This document shows positions 12,978-60,639 of a DNA stretch of 64,000 nucleotides, one piece after another (the stretch's first letter is position 1; every line of letters begins with the position of its first letter). The position numbers and the translations under genes were made by a program. This DNA comes from Thermosynechococcus sichuanensis E542 (GTDB taxonomy: Bacteria > Cyanobacteriota > Cyanobacteriia > Thermosynechococcales > Thermosynechococcaceae): positions 868,001-932,000 of the forward strand of contig NZ_CP032152.1 of NCBI RefSeq assembly GCF_003555505.1, given 5' to 3'. Below the pieces are notes generated by a model. That model saw only the letters and a list, made by a program, of their open reading frames with translations, was not told the DNA's origin and did no database searches.

Positions 12978-14043
12978 GTTCCGCTGGCGGTGGCGCCTCT
13001 TCTGGGGGTGTGGGGTTTGGTGCTGGTGAGGCTCCACTAGTAGGAGGTGGGCTAACCTCTGGCTTCGGTGTTGCTGGCCGTGTAGCAGGCGTTGGTGTTG
13101 CTGGTTGTTGTCTAGGAGCCGGCGCGGGTTGCTGACCTCGGCAGACTTCGGGGCGATACTCAAAGGCAAAGGTGAGCGCCAAAGCTTGGTATTGCCCTGT
13201 GGCCTCAAAGGATTGCTGTCTTACCCGTTCTAAAGCTGCTTGATCGAGGATTGCCGAGCCACTACTGCGAATAATCTGGGGATTGCGCGTGAGCAAACCC
13301 GTTTCTGGGGCGGCATTGGCAGGGAGCAATTCACCCTGGGGAGTCACCACTACCGCAACCGTTGTTTCCCCTTGCAGGCGATCGCCACAGGCCTCTTGGG
13401 GGTAAAAGTCTGTAATTCGCTGCGCTAAATTCACTTGCAGATTGGTCGTGTTGAGCGTTAGCCGTGTCTGACTAAACCAACGGGATAGCGCTGCTGCGGC
13501 TTCACTCTCGGTGGTTGCCACTGGCTCTGCGGGGGTGGGTTTAGGAGTCGGTGTCGGTGAGACCAGTTCCGGGGCAACGGCCACATCTTCATTTGGGGAT
13601 GTCGGAATGACGGGTAAGGGGCGGGCGGGCGGGGGCAATTGCCAAGGGGAGGGCAACGGCTGTAGGGGAATTGGATTCGGGAGCGGTGGCAGTTCCGGCA
13701 GTGGCGGCAAGGGGGGTAGCGGTGTCAAAGGAGCAAAGGAAAGGGGGGGTGGCTCAATACCTGTAAACGGCAGAGGCGGTGGCGTGGTCGTGGCAAGGGG
13801 CGGCAATTCTGTGGGCAACAGCGGTTCGATAGAGGGTAAATCCGCTTCTAGTTCGGGAGACAGGTTGACCAAGGGCACCAGTTGATCACTGGCCAACTCT
13901 GGCGGTCTCGGTTCGGGCACACGCACAAAGGAGAGGATAACAGCGTGCAGAAGAATTGAACTGGCGATCGCCAGCCGTGTTGGCTCCCACACTGGCCATT
14001 GGGAAACCCTTTGCCAAATTGGTTGAATCGGCAGCCGCAGCAT
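12913..14043 (-). CDS. Proline-rich TonB-like periplasm-spanning protein
   Basis: The 376-residue protein from MLRLPIQPIWQRV has a short cytoplasmic N-terminus and one membrane segment (LAIASSILLHAVILSFV). A very proline-rich stretch of roughly 150 residues follows (PPLPPLPELPPLPNP and similar). A folded domain then resembles the TonB C-terminus (GETTVAVVVTPQGELLPANA, then AILDQAALERVRQQSF). A second Pro/Thr/Ser-rich tail of about 65 residues follows this domain, which is unusual for TonB. Transfer of proton-motive energy to outer-membrane receptors is inferred from architecture; no exbB/exbD or receptor genes are nearby. The tail is encoded partly antisense to the ABC1 kinase. Confidence 0.65.
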   Translation of the reverse strand: MLRLPIQPIWQRVSQWPVWEPTRLAIASSILLHAVILSFVRVPEPRPPELASDQLVPLVNLSPELEADLPSIEPLLPTELPPLATTTPPPLPFTGIEPPPLSFAPLTPLPPLPPLPELPPLPNPIPLQPLPSPWQLPPPARPLPVIPTSPNEDVAVAPELVSPTPTPKPTPAEPVATTESEAAAALSRWFSQTRLTLNTTNLQVNLAQRITDFYPQEACGDRLQGETTVAVVVTPQGELLPANAAPETGLLTRNPQIIRSSGSAILDQAALERVRQQSFEATGQYQALALTFAFEYRPEVCRGQQPAPAPRQQPATPTPATRPATPKPEVSPPPTSGASPAPNPTPPEEAPPPAEPSGTNSSSEGPAATPPTTSPE

Positions 14044-14170
14044 ACAAGACACTCCACACCCGTGAATATCCATGACGATTGTATCTTGGCTGATTCTCCC
14101 TAAGGCTCAGCGAGACTTGCTAGGATAACTTGCTACGATAAGCAGATAATCCCGTCCTAAATATGGCCTG

Positions 14171-16402
14171 ATGCCAATATATTCTCTATCTCTATCAATG
14201 ATGTCTGCCCAATTTCAAGAAGTTGAAGTTATACTCAATCGTTTTTTTGTGAAAAATCTGGATCAACCAGATCTCACATTTCATGAATACCAATGCCGAT
14301 TTACTCAAGTGCCAGAACAAGGTAGTGAGCAAAAAGCCCTTTCCAGCGTTTGCTACAAACTAGGCGTAACTGCTGTTCGACTAGGGAGCCGCATTATTAC
14401 AAGGGAGCCTATTGATCGGAGTAGGATGCAAACTCAGGATTGGCAGTTAACGAAAATAGGATGTAGAGAACTGAGTTGTCAAAATAACCACGAAAGACAA
14501 GCACTGGAATCCTTTGAACGTAAAATCCTAGAGAGAAAATTAAAAGAGAGGTTTAAGAAAACCACAATTGAAAAAGACTATGAAGCAGGATTGATTTGGT
14601 GGATTTCCGACCAAGAAGGGGTAGAAAAAAGCGGCCATGGCTGGGAGGTACATAGGGGTAGAGAAATCAACGTTACAATAGATACAGAAGGAAAATTATA
14701 CTTAGAAATTGATATTCATCATCGCTTTTATACGCCATTCACACTTGAATGGTGGCTCAGAGAATATCCTGATATTCAAATTAGGTACGTGAGGAATACT
14801 TACGAAGACAAACATAAAGATAAACAAAAGTGGATTCTTGAAGATTTTACAGAAAAAAGCCCAAATGAAGAAATAGAAGAGCTGGGAAAGAGTTTAGCAG
14901 AGTATCACCGTGAAAAAGGCGCAACTGAACAAGAAATAAATGAGTCACGTGTTGTAATTGTCAGAAAAATTAATGACTACAAAGCTAAGCCAGTATATCA
15001 TTTGTCTGAAAGGCTATCACCAAGTCTCACAATGGATATGTTGGCGCAAATTGCTGAACAAGGAAGAGAAAGTGAAATTCAAGGGGTGTTTGACGACATC
15101 AAGAAAAATATTAACCTGCGTTTGCAAGAATCCCAAAAAACGGCTGAAGTCATTTTCAAAAACATCTATAATCTTAGTAGTCAACCGCAGCCAATAAAGG
15201 TGAATGGCTTTGCCATGCCTCGTCCGAAACTATTAGCTTGCAATAATAAAGAAGTTGACAAAACAGCTAGAATTCGCTCCCATGGCTGTGCAAAGATTGG
15301 TGAAACAAAATTTGGTTGCCTAAATCTCTTTAATAATAAACCTCAATACCCAGAAGAAGTCCGCAAATGCTTACTAGAAATAGCAGAAAATAGTGGCACC
15401 CAGATACAAATAGACTCCTATTTTACAAGAAGCGAATATCCGAAAGATGATTTAGCTCAACAAAGATTCTGGCAGCAATGGGCTGCTCAAGGAATTAATA
15501 CTGTTTTAGTGGTGATGCCTTGGTCACCCCATAAGTACAAAACAACGCTGCGGATACAGGCCTTAAAGGCAGGAATCGCCACTCAGTTCATGATACCAAC
15601 ACCCAAGGCTGATGCCTACAAAGCTCTCAACGTCTCCTTGGGACTGTTGTGTAAAGCCAAGTGGCAGCCTGTCTATCTAAAACCACTAGAGGAGCCTGAA
15701 GCTGCTGACCTAGTTATCGGTTTTGACACAGGTACAAATCGAAAACTGTACTATGGCACTTCTGCTTTTGCAGTCTTGGCCAATGGCCAAAGCTTGGGTT
15801 GGGAGTTACCAGATGTGCAACGGGGAGAAACCTTCTCTGGTCAATCAATTTGGCAAGTCGTGTCTAAGCTAGTGCTTAAATTCCAAGACAAATATCACTC
15901 CTACTCTAGAAAGATACTACTGATGCGCGACGGTCTTGTTCAAGAAGGGGAGTTTGAACAAACCATCAATCAACTGACAGATCAAGGTATCGCTGTCGAT
16001 ATTCTCAGTGTTCGTAAAAGTGGCTCAGGAAGGATGGGACGTGAACTCAATTCCGGCAATAGCGGAATAATCTATCGTGACGCTGAAGTGGGTACTGTGA
16101 TTTTTGATTTTGAAAGTGACTCATTTATATTACAAAGCAGCGAGGCAATCAAGACAAAAGCTGGCCCCATCATTGGCAGTGCTAGACCTCTGCGGGTTGT
16201 GCGCTACCATGGCGAGACCCCTTTAGAGCTACTGGCTTTACAGACCTATCATTTGACTCAATTGCATCCTGCTAGCGGATTTCGCTCTTGCCGACTGCCT
16301 TGGGTACTGCACTTAGCCGATAGAAGTAGCAAAGAGTTTCAGCGCATCGGTCAGATCAGGGTTTTAGAAAATATTGACCGAGAAAAGTTAATTGCTGTTT
16401 GA
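14171..16402 (+). CDS. Prokaryotic Argonaute with complete catalytic tetrad
   Basis: This is a guide-dependent nucleic-acid-binding protein of 743 residues, the size of long Argonautes (N-L1-PAZ-L2-MID-PIWI). The PIWI domain (about 505-743) carries D519 (VIGFDTGTNRK), the glutamate finger E553 (VQRGETFSG), D587 (LLMRDGLVQEGE) and D717 (RLPWVLHLADR), a full D-E-D-D slicer set. The MID domain (about 340-500) has SPHKYKTTLRIQALKAGIATQ and a basic CKAKWQP, consistent with 5'-phosphate guide binding, though the Y/K pocket does not match one subtype cleanly. Residues about 170-300 would be PAZ. The gene is AT-rich, lacks HIP1 sites and has no partner effector nearby. ATGs at 14198 or 14201 are alternative starts. 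DNA-guided DNA cleavage is inferred from the family. Confidence 0.9.
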   Translation: MPIYSLSLSMMSAQFQEVEVILNRFFVKNLDQPDLTFHEYQCRFTQVPEQGSEQKALSSVCYKLGVTAVRLGSRIITREPIDRSRMQTQDWQLTKIGCRELSCQNNHERQALESFERKILERKLKERFKKTTIEKDYEAGLIWWISDQEGVEKSGHGWEVHRGREINVTIDTEGKLYLEIDIHHRFYTPFTLEWWLREYPDIQIRYVRNTYEDKHKDKQKWILEDFTEKSPNEEIEELGKSLAEYHREKGATEQEINESRVVIVRKINDYKAKPVYHLSERLSPSLTMDMLAQIAEQGRESEIQGVFDDIKKNINLRLQESQKTAEVIFKNIYNLSSQPQPIKVNGFAMPRPKLLACNNKEVDKTARIRSHGCAKIGETKFGCLNLFNNKPQYPEEVRKCLLEIAENSGTQIQIDSYFTRSEYPKDDLAQQRFWQQWAAQGINTVLVVMPWSPHKYKTTLRIQALKAGIATQFMIPTPKADAYKALNVSLGLLCKAKWQPVYLKPLEEPEAADLVIGFDTGTNRKLYYGTSAFAVLANGQSLGWELPDVQRGETFSGQSIWQVVSKLVLKFQDKYHSYSRKILLMRDGLVQEGEFEQTINQLTDQGIAVDILSVRKSGSGRMGRELNSGNSGIIYRDAEVGTVIFDFESDSFILQSSEAIKTKAGPIIGSARPLRVVRYHGETPLELLALQTYHLTQLHPASGFRSCRLPWVLHLADRSSKEFQRIGQIRVLENIDREKLIAV

Positions 16403-56379: not shown

Positions 56380-57783
56380 TCAAAGAAATGCCCGCACGTC
56401 TGTGACTTCACCGGTAATGGCTGCGGCGGCTACCATCGCTGGACTCATGAGGAGCGTCCGTCCCGCTGCTGATCCTTGGCGTCCTTTGAAATTGCGATTG
56501 GAAGATGAGGCACTGATCTGACGCCCTTGCAGTTTGTCGGGGTTCATGGCGAGACACATCGAGCAACCGGGATTGCGCCATTCAAATCCTGCGGCTTGGA
56601 AAATGACATCAAGACCCTCCGCTTCGGCTTGTGCTTTCACCCGTTCTGAACCGGGAACTACAAAGGCTTTGACACCGGGTTTGACTTTGCGCCCTTCGAC
56701 CACTTTGGCAGCCTGTCGCAGATCACTGATGCGGCCATTGGTGCAACTGCCAATAAAGCAGACATCAATCTTGGTTCCCTGAATGGGCTGTCCCGGTTGC
56801 AGATCCATGTAGGCATAGGCTTCAGCAGCGATCGCCCGTTCTGCCTCCGGCAAACTCTCTAGGGTGGGCAAGGTCTCATCCACTGCAACGCTTTGGCCGG
56901 GGGTAATGCCCCATGTCACTGTTGGTGCAATATCCGCAGCCGTAAATGTGACCACATCATCGTATTCAGCATCCGCATCACTGGCTAGCGATCGCCACCA
57001 TGCCACCGCTTGATCCCAATTTTTACCTTGGGGTGCAAAAGGCCGACCTCGCAAATAGGCAAACGTTGTTTCATCGGGGTTGACATAACCGCAGCGGGCA
57101 CCCCCCTCAATGGCCATATTGCAGACTGTCATCCGTTCTTCCATGGACATCTGGGCAAACGTCGTGCCAGCAAACTCGTAGGCGTAGCCCACGCCACCTT
57201 TCACACCGAGCTGACGAATGATGTATAGGATGACATCTTTGGCATAGACCCCTGTGACCATCGAGCCGTTCACTTCCACCTTACGAACTTTGAGTTTATT
57301 CAAAGCTAAGGTTTGTGTGGCCAAGACATCTCGGACTTGACTAGTGCCAATGCCGAAGGCGATCGCCCCAAAGGCACCATGGGTCGAAGTGTGACTATCC
57401 CCGCAGGCGATCGTCATTCCTGGTTGGGTCAACCCTTGCTCAGGGGCAATCACATGGACAATCCCCTGACGACCGGAGCCAATCCCAAAGAAAGGAATAT
57501 TGTGAGCGCGGCAATTCGCCTCAAGGGCTTGCAGCATCTCTTCAGCAAGAGCATCTTGGAGAGGACGCGCCAGCGTATCTGTCGGCACAATGTGATCTAC
57601 CGTGGCCACGGTTCGTTGCGGATACAGCACCGGCAACCCCCGCTCCCGCAGCATGGCAAAGGCTTGGGGACTCGTGACTTCGTGAATCAGGTGCAGGCCA
57701 ATAAACAGTTGTGTTTGCCCTGAAGGCAATGTAGCCACTGTATGCTGTTCCCAAACCTTATCGAAGAGTGTACCGCGACTCAT
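56380..57783 (-). CDS. leuC: 3-isopropylmalate dehydratase large subunit LeuC
   Basis: LeuC with LeuD isomerises isopropylmalate in leucine biosynthesis. The 467-residue protein shows the aconitase-family cluster cysteines: C in [15 protein letters not shown], and [11 protein letters not shown] with two ligands. Other signature stretches are [20 protein letters not shown] and [13 protein letters not shown]. leuD is not adjacent. It lies upstream of no same-strand partner; the 140-bp gap on its 5' side separates it from the restriction-modification pair. Confidence 0.97.
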
Positions 57784-57927: not shown

Positions 57928-58593
57928 TTAATCGCTATGATTAAGCCAAAACTCCCGAACCTTTGTGAAGTATTTCAACCGCTCTTCAATCTTGCTAATT
58001 TCACGGGGATAGAATTCAGCCAATTCATCACACAACTCAAGCATCCACTGCTTACGGGAGTAGCCACGGTTAATCGTTAAAGCATTAGAGTTTACAATCT
58101 GAATTTGACCCCAACCCAAAGCGCCAATTGTTAAGCAGTTCCACCCCAAAAACTCTATTGGTAGAAATTGAACATTTTCAACACTAATACGAGTTCCTTG
58201 AGCCTCATAGGTAATCAGCAAAATTGCAAAAACATTTTCATCTGATTCATAGAAACGAGCAAGGCGTTCTACAGAAGTTAAATTGGGCATATTAAACTTT
58301 GTATTCAATCTGTGGGTTTTCACATCAATCACATAGTAGAATCCCTGATCATCCTCGAAAGCGATATCAGCCATCGCTCTACGGGCAAAATGTGCTGAAT
58401 AGTTTTTACAAATCTCTTCACCAAGAACTGCCTGTAGATGATTGCCAAGAATTTCCTGAATGGCATCACCAACAGCTCTTGGGCTATTCACTGTTGCAGC
58501 AGATAAGAAATCCTCTTGTGAATTCAAAAGTTTTTTGATGTTGCCTTCAACCTGACCAATCTTATTACTATAGAAAATATTTCTTTTTGCCAT
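57928..58593 (-). CDS. Putative type II restriction endonuclease
   Basis: The 221-residue protein is encoded six bases after the DNA methyltransferase gene on the same strand. It carries a PD-(D/E)xK-like core: ADIAFEDDQGFYYVIDVKTHRLNTK, best read as D in MADIAF and the IDVKT motif (D-x-K), with a preceding helix containing E/R residues (GEEICKNYSAHFARRA). The rest has no recognised domain. The gene pairing and the motif support a restriction enzyme; its recognition site is unknown. Composition is AT-rich with no HIP1 sites, unlike leuC and gshB beside it. Confidence 0.78.
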   Translation of the reverse strand: MAKRNIFYSNKIGQVEGNIKKLLNSQEDFLSAATVNSPRAVGDAIQEILGNHLQAVLGEEICKNYSAHFARRAMADIAFEDDQGFYYVIDVKTHRLNTKFNMPNLTSVERLARFYESDENVFAILLITYEAQGTRISVENVQFLPIEFLGWNCLTIGALGWGQIQIVNSNALTINRGYSRKQWMLELCDELAEFYPREISKIEERLKYFTKVREFWLNHSD

Positions 58594-58599
58594 TGATCC

Positions 58600-59613
58600 T
58601 TATGTTCCTTCTAGCGAAAAAAGCTCTGGTTGGTGAGATAGCTGATCGCACTGATACGGCTTTTGTGCAGAACGTCCTTGCTCATTTAATGTGTTTCTTT
58701 CCCAAAACACGCCATCAGCATACCCCTGAATCGAAGTATCTACTTCAGCCATTTCAAGACGCTTCTCCGCTAGACAAGCATAGGTCTCATCCAATTCAAC
58801 TCCCAAAAAACGCCTACCGAGCTTCTTGGCAACGACAGAGGTTGTTCCAGATCCGAGGAACGGATCAAAAATAATATCCTCTGGATTGGAACTAGCTAAA
58901 ATGACCTTAGCTAGTAGTTTCTCAGGCTTTTGGGTGGGATGATCTGTATTTTCTGGCATTGACCAAAAGGGCACAGTTAAGTCTGTCCATAGGTTAGAAG
59001 GATGGGTTAGACGGTAATTACCTTCTTCTGTGGCTTCCCAGTCTTTGGGATGTCCATTGACTCTATAAGGAGCGATGACTTTACGCTTAAGCTTAACAGC
59101 CTCAACATTGAAGGTGTACTCATCAGAAACAGTGCAGAACCATATATCCTCAGAGGCATTTTTCCAATTCTTCTTTGCTCCTCGTCCTTTCTCGCGCTCC
59201 CATGTAATTCGGTTACGGACTCGAAAACGGTCTTTAATGACCTCAAATACAGCAAATGAAGATTCCCAATCAGAGCAAATGTAAATTGATGCAGTTGGTT
59301 TTAGAATTTTTTCAAGACTTGACAAACATGACTCTAGCCAATTGGTATAGTCCTCTAAACTTTTTTTCTTGAAGCTAATTGAGTTAAATACTTTATTCAG
59401 GTTGTAGGGCGGATCAATAAAAAGCAAATCAACAAATTGACTCGGGATAAAATTGACAACTTCAAAGATATCTTGATTGATGGTGCGGTTAATGATTTCT
59501 GATAGGCTCACAGGATGACTCAATCGTAGGAGTCGCTGTCGATACTTTCCTTTTTCTTGCTCGGTCAATGTGATTGTTCTATTTCTGGGGGCGCGTTCTT
59601 TGCTGTGAACCAT
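58600..59613 (-). CDS. DNA methyltransferase of a type II restriction-modification system (beta class)
   Basis: This is an amino-methyltransferase making N6-methyladenine or N4-methylcytosine. The 337 residues show motif IV first (LLFIDPPYNLNKVF) and the SAM-binding motif I near the C-terminus (FDPFLGSGTTSVVAKKLGRR, then FLGVELDETY), the order of beta-class enzymes. NHPTQKPEKLL-like DHPTQKPEKLLAKVI is also present. A target-recognition region lies between (about 120-220). The endonuclease gene follows by six bases. AT-rich codon use marks it as acquired. Specificity cannot be read. Confidence 0.92.
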   Translation of the reverse strand: MVHSKERAPRNRTITLTEQEKGKYRQRLLRLSHPVSLSEIINRTINQDIFEVVNFIPSQFVDLLFIDPPYNLNKVFNSISFKKKSLEDYTNWLESCLSSLEKILKPTASIYICSDWESSFAVFEVIKDRFRVRNRITWEREKGRGAKKNWKNASEDIWFCTVSDEYTFNVEAVKLKRKVIAPYRVNGHPKDWEATEEGNYRLTHPSNLWTDLTVPFWSMPENTDHPTQKPEKLLAKVILASSNPEDIIFDPFLGSGTTSVVAKKLGRRFLGVELDETYACLAEKRLEMAEVDTSIQGYADGVFWERNTLNEQGRSAQKPYQCDQLSHQPELFSLEGT

Positions 59614-59676: not shown

Positions 59677-60639
59677 CTAGCCCAATAGCCAAGCCATCAC
59701 CTGTTGACCGAGGTGAGTATCATTCAGGCGATCGATCTCGCGAACACCGGTGGGGCTAGTCACATTCACTTCTGTTAAATAACCACCGATGACATCAATT
59801 CCCACAAAATAGAGGCCATCGCGCCGCAGAGCAGGGGCTAAGGTCTGACAAATCTGGCGATCGCGCTCTGTAAGTTCAACAGCAGCCACCCGTCCCCCCG
59901 TGGCCATATTGCCGCGAAATTCATCCCCTGTGGGAATCCGATTCACAGCACCAATGGGTTCACCATTCAGGAGAATAATGCGTTTATCACCTTCCTTGGC
60001 CGCTGGTAGGTACTCCTGCACCATCACGGGGAGTTGTCCGCGTTGGGTACTGATTTCAATCATTGAATTGAGGTTGCGATCGCCCGCCTGCAAAAAGAGG
60101 ATCCCTTCCCCCGCTTTGCCCCCCAAGGGTTTGAGCACCGCCATGCCCTGCTGCTGCACAAATTCACGAATCCGCTGCTTGTCTCCAGTCACAATCGTCT
60201 TGGGAATCACACTGGTAAATTGCAGGGCATACATCTTTTCATTGGCATGGCGTAACCCCGCTGGCGAGTTGAGGACAAGGGTGGTTTGGGGATCGACTAA
60301 ATCCAGACAGTAGGTGGCATAGAGATAGGCGGTATTCACGGGGGGATCTTTGCGCATCCACACCGCTCGAAAGCTGTTGAGGGGTCGCCATTCCGCTGCG
60401 CCTGCCTGAAACCAAGGTTGGGGAATCTGCCACTGGCCGGCCACGAGCTGCACAGGCGATAACTGAATTGGGGTAACTGCCGCCCATACCTGACCTTCTC
60501 GGATCAGCAGTTGCGATATTTCTGTTACCCACACCTGTGCCCCTGCCGCTTGCGCTGCCTCCATTAAGGCCACACTGGTATCGTGGCCAGGGTCAAGGCT
60601 GGCGATCGGGTCAATGATAAAGGCGATATCCACAGCCAT
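59677..60639 (-). CDS. gshB: Glutathione synthetase
   Basis: GshB joins gamma-glutamylcysteine and glycine using ATP. The 320-residue ATP-grasp enzyme shows FIIDPIASLDPGHDTSVALM, MRKDPPVNTAYLYATYCLD, VLKPLGGKAGEGILFL and the C-terminal NVTSPTGVREIDRL, all family signatures. It follows grx by four bases, so the glutathione-forming and the glutathione-using gene are one operon. Length is normal for cyanobacterial GshB. Confidence 0.97.
   Translation of the reverse strand: MAVDIAFIIDPIASLDPGHDTSVALMEAAQAAGAQVWVTEISQLLIREGQVWAAVTPIQLSPVQLVAGQWQIPQPWFQAGAAEWRPLNSFRAVWMRKDPPVNTAYLYATYCLDLVDPQTTLVLNSPAGLRHANEKMYALQFTSVIPKTIVTGDKQRIREFVQQQGMAVLKPLGGKAGEGILFLQAGDRNLNSMIEISTQRGQLPVMVQEYLPAAKEGDKRIILLNGEPIGAVNRIPTGDEFRGNMATGGRVAAVELTERDRQICQTLAPALRRDGLYFVGIDVIGGYLTEVNVTSPTGVREIDRLNDTHLGQQVMAWLLG

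What the first reader, a model, noticed from the sequence alone, without database searches (positions are those of the whole stretch)
57928..59613. AT-rich type II restriction-modification pair between leuC and gshB
Methyltransferase then endonuclease, six bases apart, with no HIP1 sites and visibly higher AT than both flanks. The endonuclease has a D-x-K (IDVKT) core but otherwise no recognisable family, so its specificity may be new.
Basis: partly seen in the sequence, partly recalled or inferred. Interest (0 to 1): 0.5.

Follow-up and report, generated by a model that had tools for sequence, protein, structure and literature searches.

The report
Type II restriction-modification gene pair
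A hot-spring cyanobacterium (probably Thermosynechococcus) carries an intact, horizontally acquired pair of genes for a DNA-methylating enzyme and its partner DNA-cutting enzyme, a standard bacterial defence; the cutter belongs to a widespread family shaped like the known enzymes SwaI and HincII, and its target sequence is still unknown.

Summary
A 337-aa beta-class methyltransferase (58600-59613, minus) and a 221-aa endonuclease (57928-58593, minus) lie six bases apart between gshB and leuC, at 40.5% GC against 53.3% for the window. The Type II restriction-modification reading is well supported: all 80 endonuclease relatives kept from one genome scan have the same methyltransferase just upstream, the two proteins' distances are correlated, and D76, D90 and K92 are near-invariant. 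'No recognisable family' is half right: no model in Pfam, NCBIfam or PADLOC clearly fits, but the AlphaFold model matches R.SwaI over nearly its whole length (Z 17.6), then HincII (14.0) and EcoRV (12.6), and HincII is marginally visible by sequence. I infer a homodimeric palindrome-reader, probably a central blunt cutter. The target is not settled: TTTAAA is depleted about twofold in carriers within the genus, but ACGCGT separates carriers equally well, and among relatives of an Acidobacteria carrier TTTAAA depletion does not follow the system. In the genus the pair is intact in 4 of 11 genomes and a relic in 3, two of these between gshB and leuC, one beside leuC: gain and decay of a defence island. 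Ordinary in kind; a decent enzyme-family lead.

The parts
58600..59613 (-). beta-class DNA methyltransferase (337 aa), DPPY before FxGxG, predicted N6-adenine
   Evidence: Pfam PF01555 E 6.6e-45; PADLOC MTase_II E 3.5e-66; motif order D67PPY70 then D250PFLGSG256
57928..58593 (-). PD-(D/E)XK restriction endonuclease (221 aa), SwaI/HincII-like fold, predicted catalytic D76, D90-V-K92
   Evidence: AlphaFold2 model pLDDT 89.9; VIA Z 17.6 to R.SwaI, 14.0 to HincII; invariant residues
58594..58599 (-). six-base gap between the two genes, consistent with one transcript
   Evidence: in 72 of the 80 kept relatives the gap is -11 to +25 bases, in 32 a 4-base overlap; extremes -145 and +66; starts were picked by script

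Best explanation
This is an intact Type IIP restriction-modification operon. The beta-class methyltransferase marks an adenine in a short palindrome on both strands of host DNA. The endonuclease, a PD-(D/E)XK enzyme of the SwaI/HincII/EcoRV structural branch, dimerises through its long C-terminal helix, reads the same palindrome with the conserved NMPNLTS and ALGWGQIQ loops, and cuts unmethylated incoming DNA, most likely at the centre to leave blunt ends, using D76, D90 and K92 with magnesium. The pair was acquired horizontally and inserted between gshB and leuC in an ancestor of part of the genus; it has been kept in some lineages and has decayed in others. Shown here: genes, pairing, conservation, predicted fold, relics. 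Inferred: activity, dimer, blunt cut, loop roles, horizontal origin (composition and spread). Unknown: target sequence; my leading guess is a TTTAAA-containing site (about 0.25).
For: Methyltransferase family and motif order. Endonuclease fold: R.SwaI Z 17.6, rmsd 3.0, 208 residues aligned of a 225-residue chain; HincII Z 14.0, rmsd 3.4, 193-195 aligned; EcoRV Z 12.6; Foldseek best 5.3e-08, R.SwaI. HincII by sequence: profile E 0.0041; 33 of 56 members touch PF09226 at E up to 0.5, best 1e-4. HincII's TAD...LDVKT and APNIIS align with the family's MAD76...D90VK92T and MPN104LTS. 164 relatives among genome contigs, best 80 kept; 80 of these 80 have the methyltransferase next door on the same strand. 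Mantel r 0.636 between the two proteins' distances, 0 of 999 permutations as high, n = 78 pairs. D76 78/78, D90 78/78, K92 77/78. No stop inside the matched endonuclease stretch in 77 of the 80. A paper describes R.SwaI and HincII as having long helices at the dimer interface and central blunt cuts (PMC6158711, passages); the model has a 38-residue C-terminal helix, 180-217.
Against: No activity or methylation data. HincII Pfam score 14 bits is under the 23.7 cut-off. R.SwaI, the best fold match, is not found by sequence at E up to 10. Foldseek's own superpositions on HincII are loose (TM about 0.5, rmsd mostly 9-14). No promoter or terminator stands out above shuffles. Target undetermined: TTTAAA and ACGCGT separate carriers from non-carriers of the genus equally well (1 of 126 arrangements each), and in 24 genomes around an Acidobacteria carrier TTTAAA depletion is not tied to carrying the system.
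Confidence: 0.88

Rival explanations
1. Same mechanism, but the target is of the HincII/HpaI kind (GTNNAC such as GTYRAC or GTTAAC).
For: HincII is the only solved endonuclease with a marginal sequence match. The closest solved methyltransferase is 8urk, which I recall, without a call to show it, as M.BceJIV reading GTWWAC. GTCGAC is rarer on average in carriers (ratio 0.33, 3 of 126 arrangements as extreme).
Against: R.SwaI, not HincII, is the best fold match. GTTAAC is hardly avoided in carriers (0.68-0.97 of expectation). GTCGAC counts overlap between carriers and non-carriers.
Confidence: 0.2
2. The methyltransferase now works alone as a regulatory enzyme and the endonuclease is inactive or unexpressed.
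For: Relatives show this end state: G241 has an intact methyltransferase beside a broken endonuclease; methyltransferase homologues at 57-58% identity lie in a Prevotella replicon and a gut scaffold with no endonuclease homologue seen in the stretches fetched. Endonuclease relics occur in 3 of 11 genus genomes.
Against: The window endonuclease is full length and carries the family's invariant residues, and G247 and G390 keep it intact at 88% and about 85% identity.
Confidence: 0.08
3. The endonuclease is a DpnI-like enzyme that cuts methylated DNA, paired with the methyltransferase by chance.
For: DpnI structures appear low in the fold lists (Foldseek 1.6e-03; Z 6.6).
Against: Pairing in 80 of 80 kept loci and correlated distances; a self-cutting pair would kill its host; SwaI and HincII score far higher.
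Confidence: 0.02

Closest known systems
R.SwaI (ATTTAAAT, blunt; PDB 5tgx/5tgq)
   Same: Near-identical length (221 aa against chains of 225-226) and fold over 208 residues, Z 17.6; long helices at the interface by the paper's account, long C-terminal helix in the model
   Different: 14% identity; not detected by sequence; target of the window enzyme unknown
HincII (GTYRAC, blunt; Pfam PF09226)
   Same: Z 14.0 fold; aligned D, D, K and PN-x-x-S motif; both hold a QIQ stretch
   Different: Below the Pfam cut-off (14 against 23.7 bits); about 20% identity; HincII chains are longer (257 aa)
EcoRV (GATATC, blunt)
   Same: Same branch of the fold, Z 12.6
   Different: 8% identity; not found by sequence
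8urk methyltransferase and NCBIfam NF008572 (PRK11524, which I recall as YhdJ)
   Same: Beta-class methyltransferase, profile E 1.2e-44 to 8urk; 157 bits to NF008572
   Different: NF008572 cut-off of 292 bits not reached; the conserved C-terminal IQGYxDGVFWERN tail (295-307) lies beyond the part aligned to 8urk

Membership tests
Type II restriction-modification system | separate methyltransferase and endonuclease genes side by side | tested here: met
   window and 80 of 80 kept relatives
Type II restriction-modification system | methyltransferase with SAM (FxGxG) and catalytic (DPPY) motifs | tested here: met
Type II restriction-modification system | endonuclease with a conserved nuclease active site | tested here: met
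   D76 78/78, D90 78/78, K92 77/78; aligned with HincII AD...DVK
Type II restriction-modification system | cleavage at a defined site, blocked by the partner's methylation | not testable with these tools
   needs a digest and a methylome
HincII family (Pfam PF09226) | score above the curated cut-off of 23.7 bits | tested here: not met
   window protein 14 bits, E 0.033; L090 copy 19.6 bits; best E among 56 members 1e-4, its bit score not shown
SwaI-like endonucleases | same fold over most of the chain | tested here: met
   Z 17.6, rmsd 3.0, 208 aligned of 225; a shared fold does not prove membership
SwaI-like endonucleases | detectable sequence homology | tested here: inconclusive
   R.SwaI not listed at E up to 10
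SwaI-like endonucleases | ATTTAAAT target, central blunt cut | not testable with these tools
   the 8-mer is too rare to judge avoidance (0 observed, 0.2 expected in 462 kb of G000)
Beta-class DNA methyltransferases | motif order IV (DPPY), target domain, I (FxGxG) | tested here: met
   D67PPY70 before D250PFLGSG256

The most novel reading that the evidence does not exclude
The endonuclease founds an uncatalogued Type IIP family, spread over many bacterial phyla and some viral contigs, whose members share one strictly conserved recognition surface and hence one target that no characterised enzyme of this branch reads; the thermophilic window copy would be a ready source of a heat-stable version.
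Probability: 0.2. Interest if true: 0.45.

Novelty: new member of a known kind. Interest (0 to 1): 0.3.

Why it matters
The family is large (164 relatives from two short patterns) and clearly restriction-linked, yet no model in Pfam, NCBIfam or PADLOC clearly fits it, so annotation that relies on them may leave it unnamed. A defined SwaI/HincII-like family would let those genes be named, and one methylome might give the target for many of them. For the host genus, knowing the target would help transformation.

Tried and rejected
Avoidance as a route to the target. Sampled stretches of 7 genus genomes (4 carriers, 3 not): many palindromes are avoided in the whole genus. ACGCGT, CTGCAG, TTCGAA and GGGCCC separate the groups in the samples; TTTAAA and GTCGAC do not. 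Whole-genome counts in 9 of the 11 genus genomes (G389 and G392 not counted; 3 of the 5 'non-carriers' hold relics): TTTAAA separates fully (9-24 against 28-48 per Mb) while its reversed control AAATTT is slightly higher in carriers; ACGCGT also separates fully; GTCGAC and GATATC do not. Only these four patterns were counted genome-wide there, and the carriers are not independent. Thirty carrier genomes of other groups (30 of the 80 kept, picked by me for variety): TTTAAA/AAATTT median 0.16, 10 of 30 under 0.1. Of 24 genomes around the Acidobacteria bin G396, two hold a full copy; the other 22 have median 0.18, 9 of 22 under 0.1; two of these 22 (G433, G445) have weak partial hits. So TTTAAA is not diagnostic and stays a guess.

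Pooled flanks of the 80 host loci: several sites depleted (CTCGAG 0.48, CTGCAG 0.54, TTTAAA 0.65, GTCGAC 0.66 of expectation), no single outstanding one. Missing HIP1 as proof of recent arrival: weak on its own. Plasmid and phage tblastn for the endonuclease at E 0.01: no match. The single-protein viral scan found nothing; the alignment scan found 3 loci. The divergent viral copy and the distant L262 enzyme had no PDB match by sequence.

Papers: ten searches were seen as listings; I saw passages of PMC9403480, PMC6158711, PMC4752239 (no tested motif named there) and PMC11842806 (a reference-list entry), and section 18 of PMC9403480. The R.SwaI and M.BceJIV structure papers are not held.

The paper search for it (listing of 30 of 49) gave nothing that links them. 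G368 does not strongly avoid TTTAAA (2169 against 3350 controls).

Full report
What is there. On the minus strand, between gshB (59677-60639) and leuC (56380-57783), a 337-aa ORF (58600-59613) is followed after six bases by a 221-aa ORF (57928-58593). The pair has 40.5% GC against 53.3% for the window and about 55% for both neighbours; only windows starting at 13951-14451 are as AT-rich (7 of 1174 windows clear of the pair). HIP1 sites are absent from the 2.5 kb around it, but absence over the length of the pair is not unusual (72 of 1247 windows; the window holds 99 HIP1 sites). The window is G000:C1:868001-932000 of a 2,650,294-bp genome.

The methyltransferase. It matches N6_N4_Mtase (E 6.6e-45) and PADLOC type II methyltransferases (3.5e-66). 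DPPY comes before FxGxG, the beta-class order; DPPY points to N6-adenine (general knowledge). The nearest solved structure by sequence is 8urk (profile E 1.2e-44).

The endonuclease. The libraries give no confident name: PF09226 HincII at 14 bits against a cut-off of 23.7, nothing in NCBIfam for the window protein, PADLOC REase_II at E 0.025, nothing in PHROGs. Scanning 56 family members: HincII touched by 33 at E up to 0.5, best 1e-4; PADLOC REase_II models by up to 14 members, best 8.1e-05; NCBIfam only scattered weak hits. A profile of the family finds HincII first in the PDB, at a marginal E 0.0041. The AlphaFold2 model (56 sequences, pLDDT 89.9, pTM 0.84) matches R.SwaI best by Foldseek (5.3e-08) and VIA (Z 17.6, 208 residues), then HincII (14.0), EcoRV (12.6) and NlaIV (9.6). 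Foldseek's superpositions on HincII are loose (TM about 0.5, rmsd mostly 9-14); VIA's are tighter (3.4). The aligned HincII segment pairs the family's D76 and D90-x-K92 with HincII's AD and DVK, which I recall as its catalytic D114, D127 and K129, and MPN104LTS107 with HincII's APNIIS, which I take to hold N141, the residue changed in PDB entry 3ebc (title).

The family. A pattern scan of the genome collection matched 235 stretches, of which 164 encode relatives; the best 80 were kept. Record titles include Cyanobacteria, Planctomycetota, Acidobacteria, Chloroflexi, Deltaproteobacteria, Pseudomonadales, several candidate-phylum bins, Elusimicrobia, Caldisericia and Ignavibacterium; most are metagenome bins, so single placements may be wrong. 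All 80 have the methyltransferase immediately upstream on the same strand. A stop interrupts the matched endonuclease stretch in 3 of 80 (L024, L029, L060) and the methyltransferase in 2 (L085, L086); two methyltransferases are short at contig ends (L053, L057). Among 78 clean pairs (73 of the 80, plus L001-L004 and L090) endonuclease and methyltransferase distances correlate (r 0.636, 0 of 999 permutations): they travel together. Positions in the supposed reading loops are very constant: P103 78/78, N104 77/78, S107 78/78, G160 78/78, Q163 77/78, Q165 78/78, R180 78/78. In a sample of 386 genomes of the window's phylum 6 have a match: intact in G000, G247, G085 and G368, broken in G241 and G089. 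Three IMG/VR contigs have a relative: L090 and L091 are the same stretch letter for letter with an open pair, L089 is in pieces. The 36-39% copy L090 keeps the same blocks. A still more distant endonuclease beside a beta-class methyltransferase (L262) shares DVK, PNxTS and GxGQIQI (hhalign probability 94.7%).

History in the genus. Of 11 genomes, 4 have an intact endonuclease (G000, G247, G390, G391), 3 have relics (G089, G387, G388), 4 show none (G179, G386, G389, G392; the last two are in 220 and 80 contigs). G000 and G247 sit between gshB and leuC; G390 follows gshB, but leuC is not in the fetched stretch; G391 has a more diverged copy (76%) with neither neighbour in view. G089 and G387 keep endonuclease residues from 113 onward, between gshB and leuC and directly behind gshB, and show no methyltransferase; the left breakpoint is the same, so probably one shared deletion. 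G388 keeps methyltransferase residues 261-334 and endonuclease residues 11-57 beside leuC, with gshB not in view: a different deletion. So the pair probably entered this site before part of the genus split and has been lost at least twice. A paper on the genus reports patchy type I, II and III systems and multiple gain/loss events (PMC9403480, passages and section 18).

The target. It is not determined. TTTAAA is very rare in G000 (24 in the genome against 1032 for AAATTT) and lower in all four carriers than in all five counted non-carriers (1 of 126 arrangements), which would fit an enzyme built like SwaI (ATTTAAAT). But ACGCGT behaves the same way, carriers share ancestry, and outside the genus 30 chosen carriers are no more depleted (median 0.16) than 22 relatives of G396 without a full copy (median 0.18). 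GTTAAC is not strongly avoided in carriers (0.68-0.97 of expectation). I put TTTAAA or a longer site with that core first at about 0.25, GTNNAC at about 0.2, the rest open.

Verdict. A real, intact, ordinary Type II restriction-modification pair whose endonuclease belongs to a widespread family that the libraries searched here do not clearly model. It may be new as a family label, not as a mechanism. Whether its specificity is known could not be checked, because REBASE was not available here.

Noticed in passing
window 14171-16402 (+): 743-aa prokaryotic Argonaute (PADLOC pAgo E 3.4e-302, Pfam PAZ_3 E 2.6e-30, Thermus thermophilus Ago E 2.6e-67). It fills the only other stretch of the window as AT-rich as the restriction-modification pair, and the longest HIP1-free gap (2780 bp from 13964), so the two compositional outliers are both defence genes.
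   Followed up: partly
L005 1501-2366 (genome G241): Endonuclease broken into pieces beside an intact methyltransferase: a solitary methyltransferase in the making.
   Followed up: partly
L251 2495-3448; L252 1179-2117: Methyltransferase homologues at 57-58% identity with no endonuclease homologue seen among the listed ORFs next door, in a Prevotella replicon and an unverified gut scaffold (judged by eye).
   Followed up: partly
L262 1096-2747 (genome G433): Distant endonuclease (275 aa) followed by a beta-class methyltransferase, in reversed gene order; shares the DVK, PNxTS and GxGQIQI blocks. No Pfam or PDB match for the endonuclease.
   Followed up: partly
L105 2249-2539 (genome G390): Beside the intact pair in G390, where leuC would be expected, an ORF looks by eye like a transposon-linked TnpB fragment (not searched).
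   Followed up: no
genome G000, several places: Six matches to N6_N4_Mtase, five marked over the cut-off, so other adenine or cytosine methyltransferases may act in this host and confuse avoidance tests.
   Followed up: no
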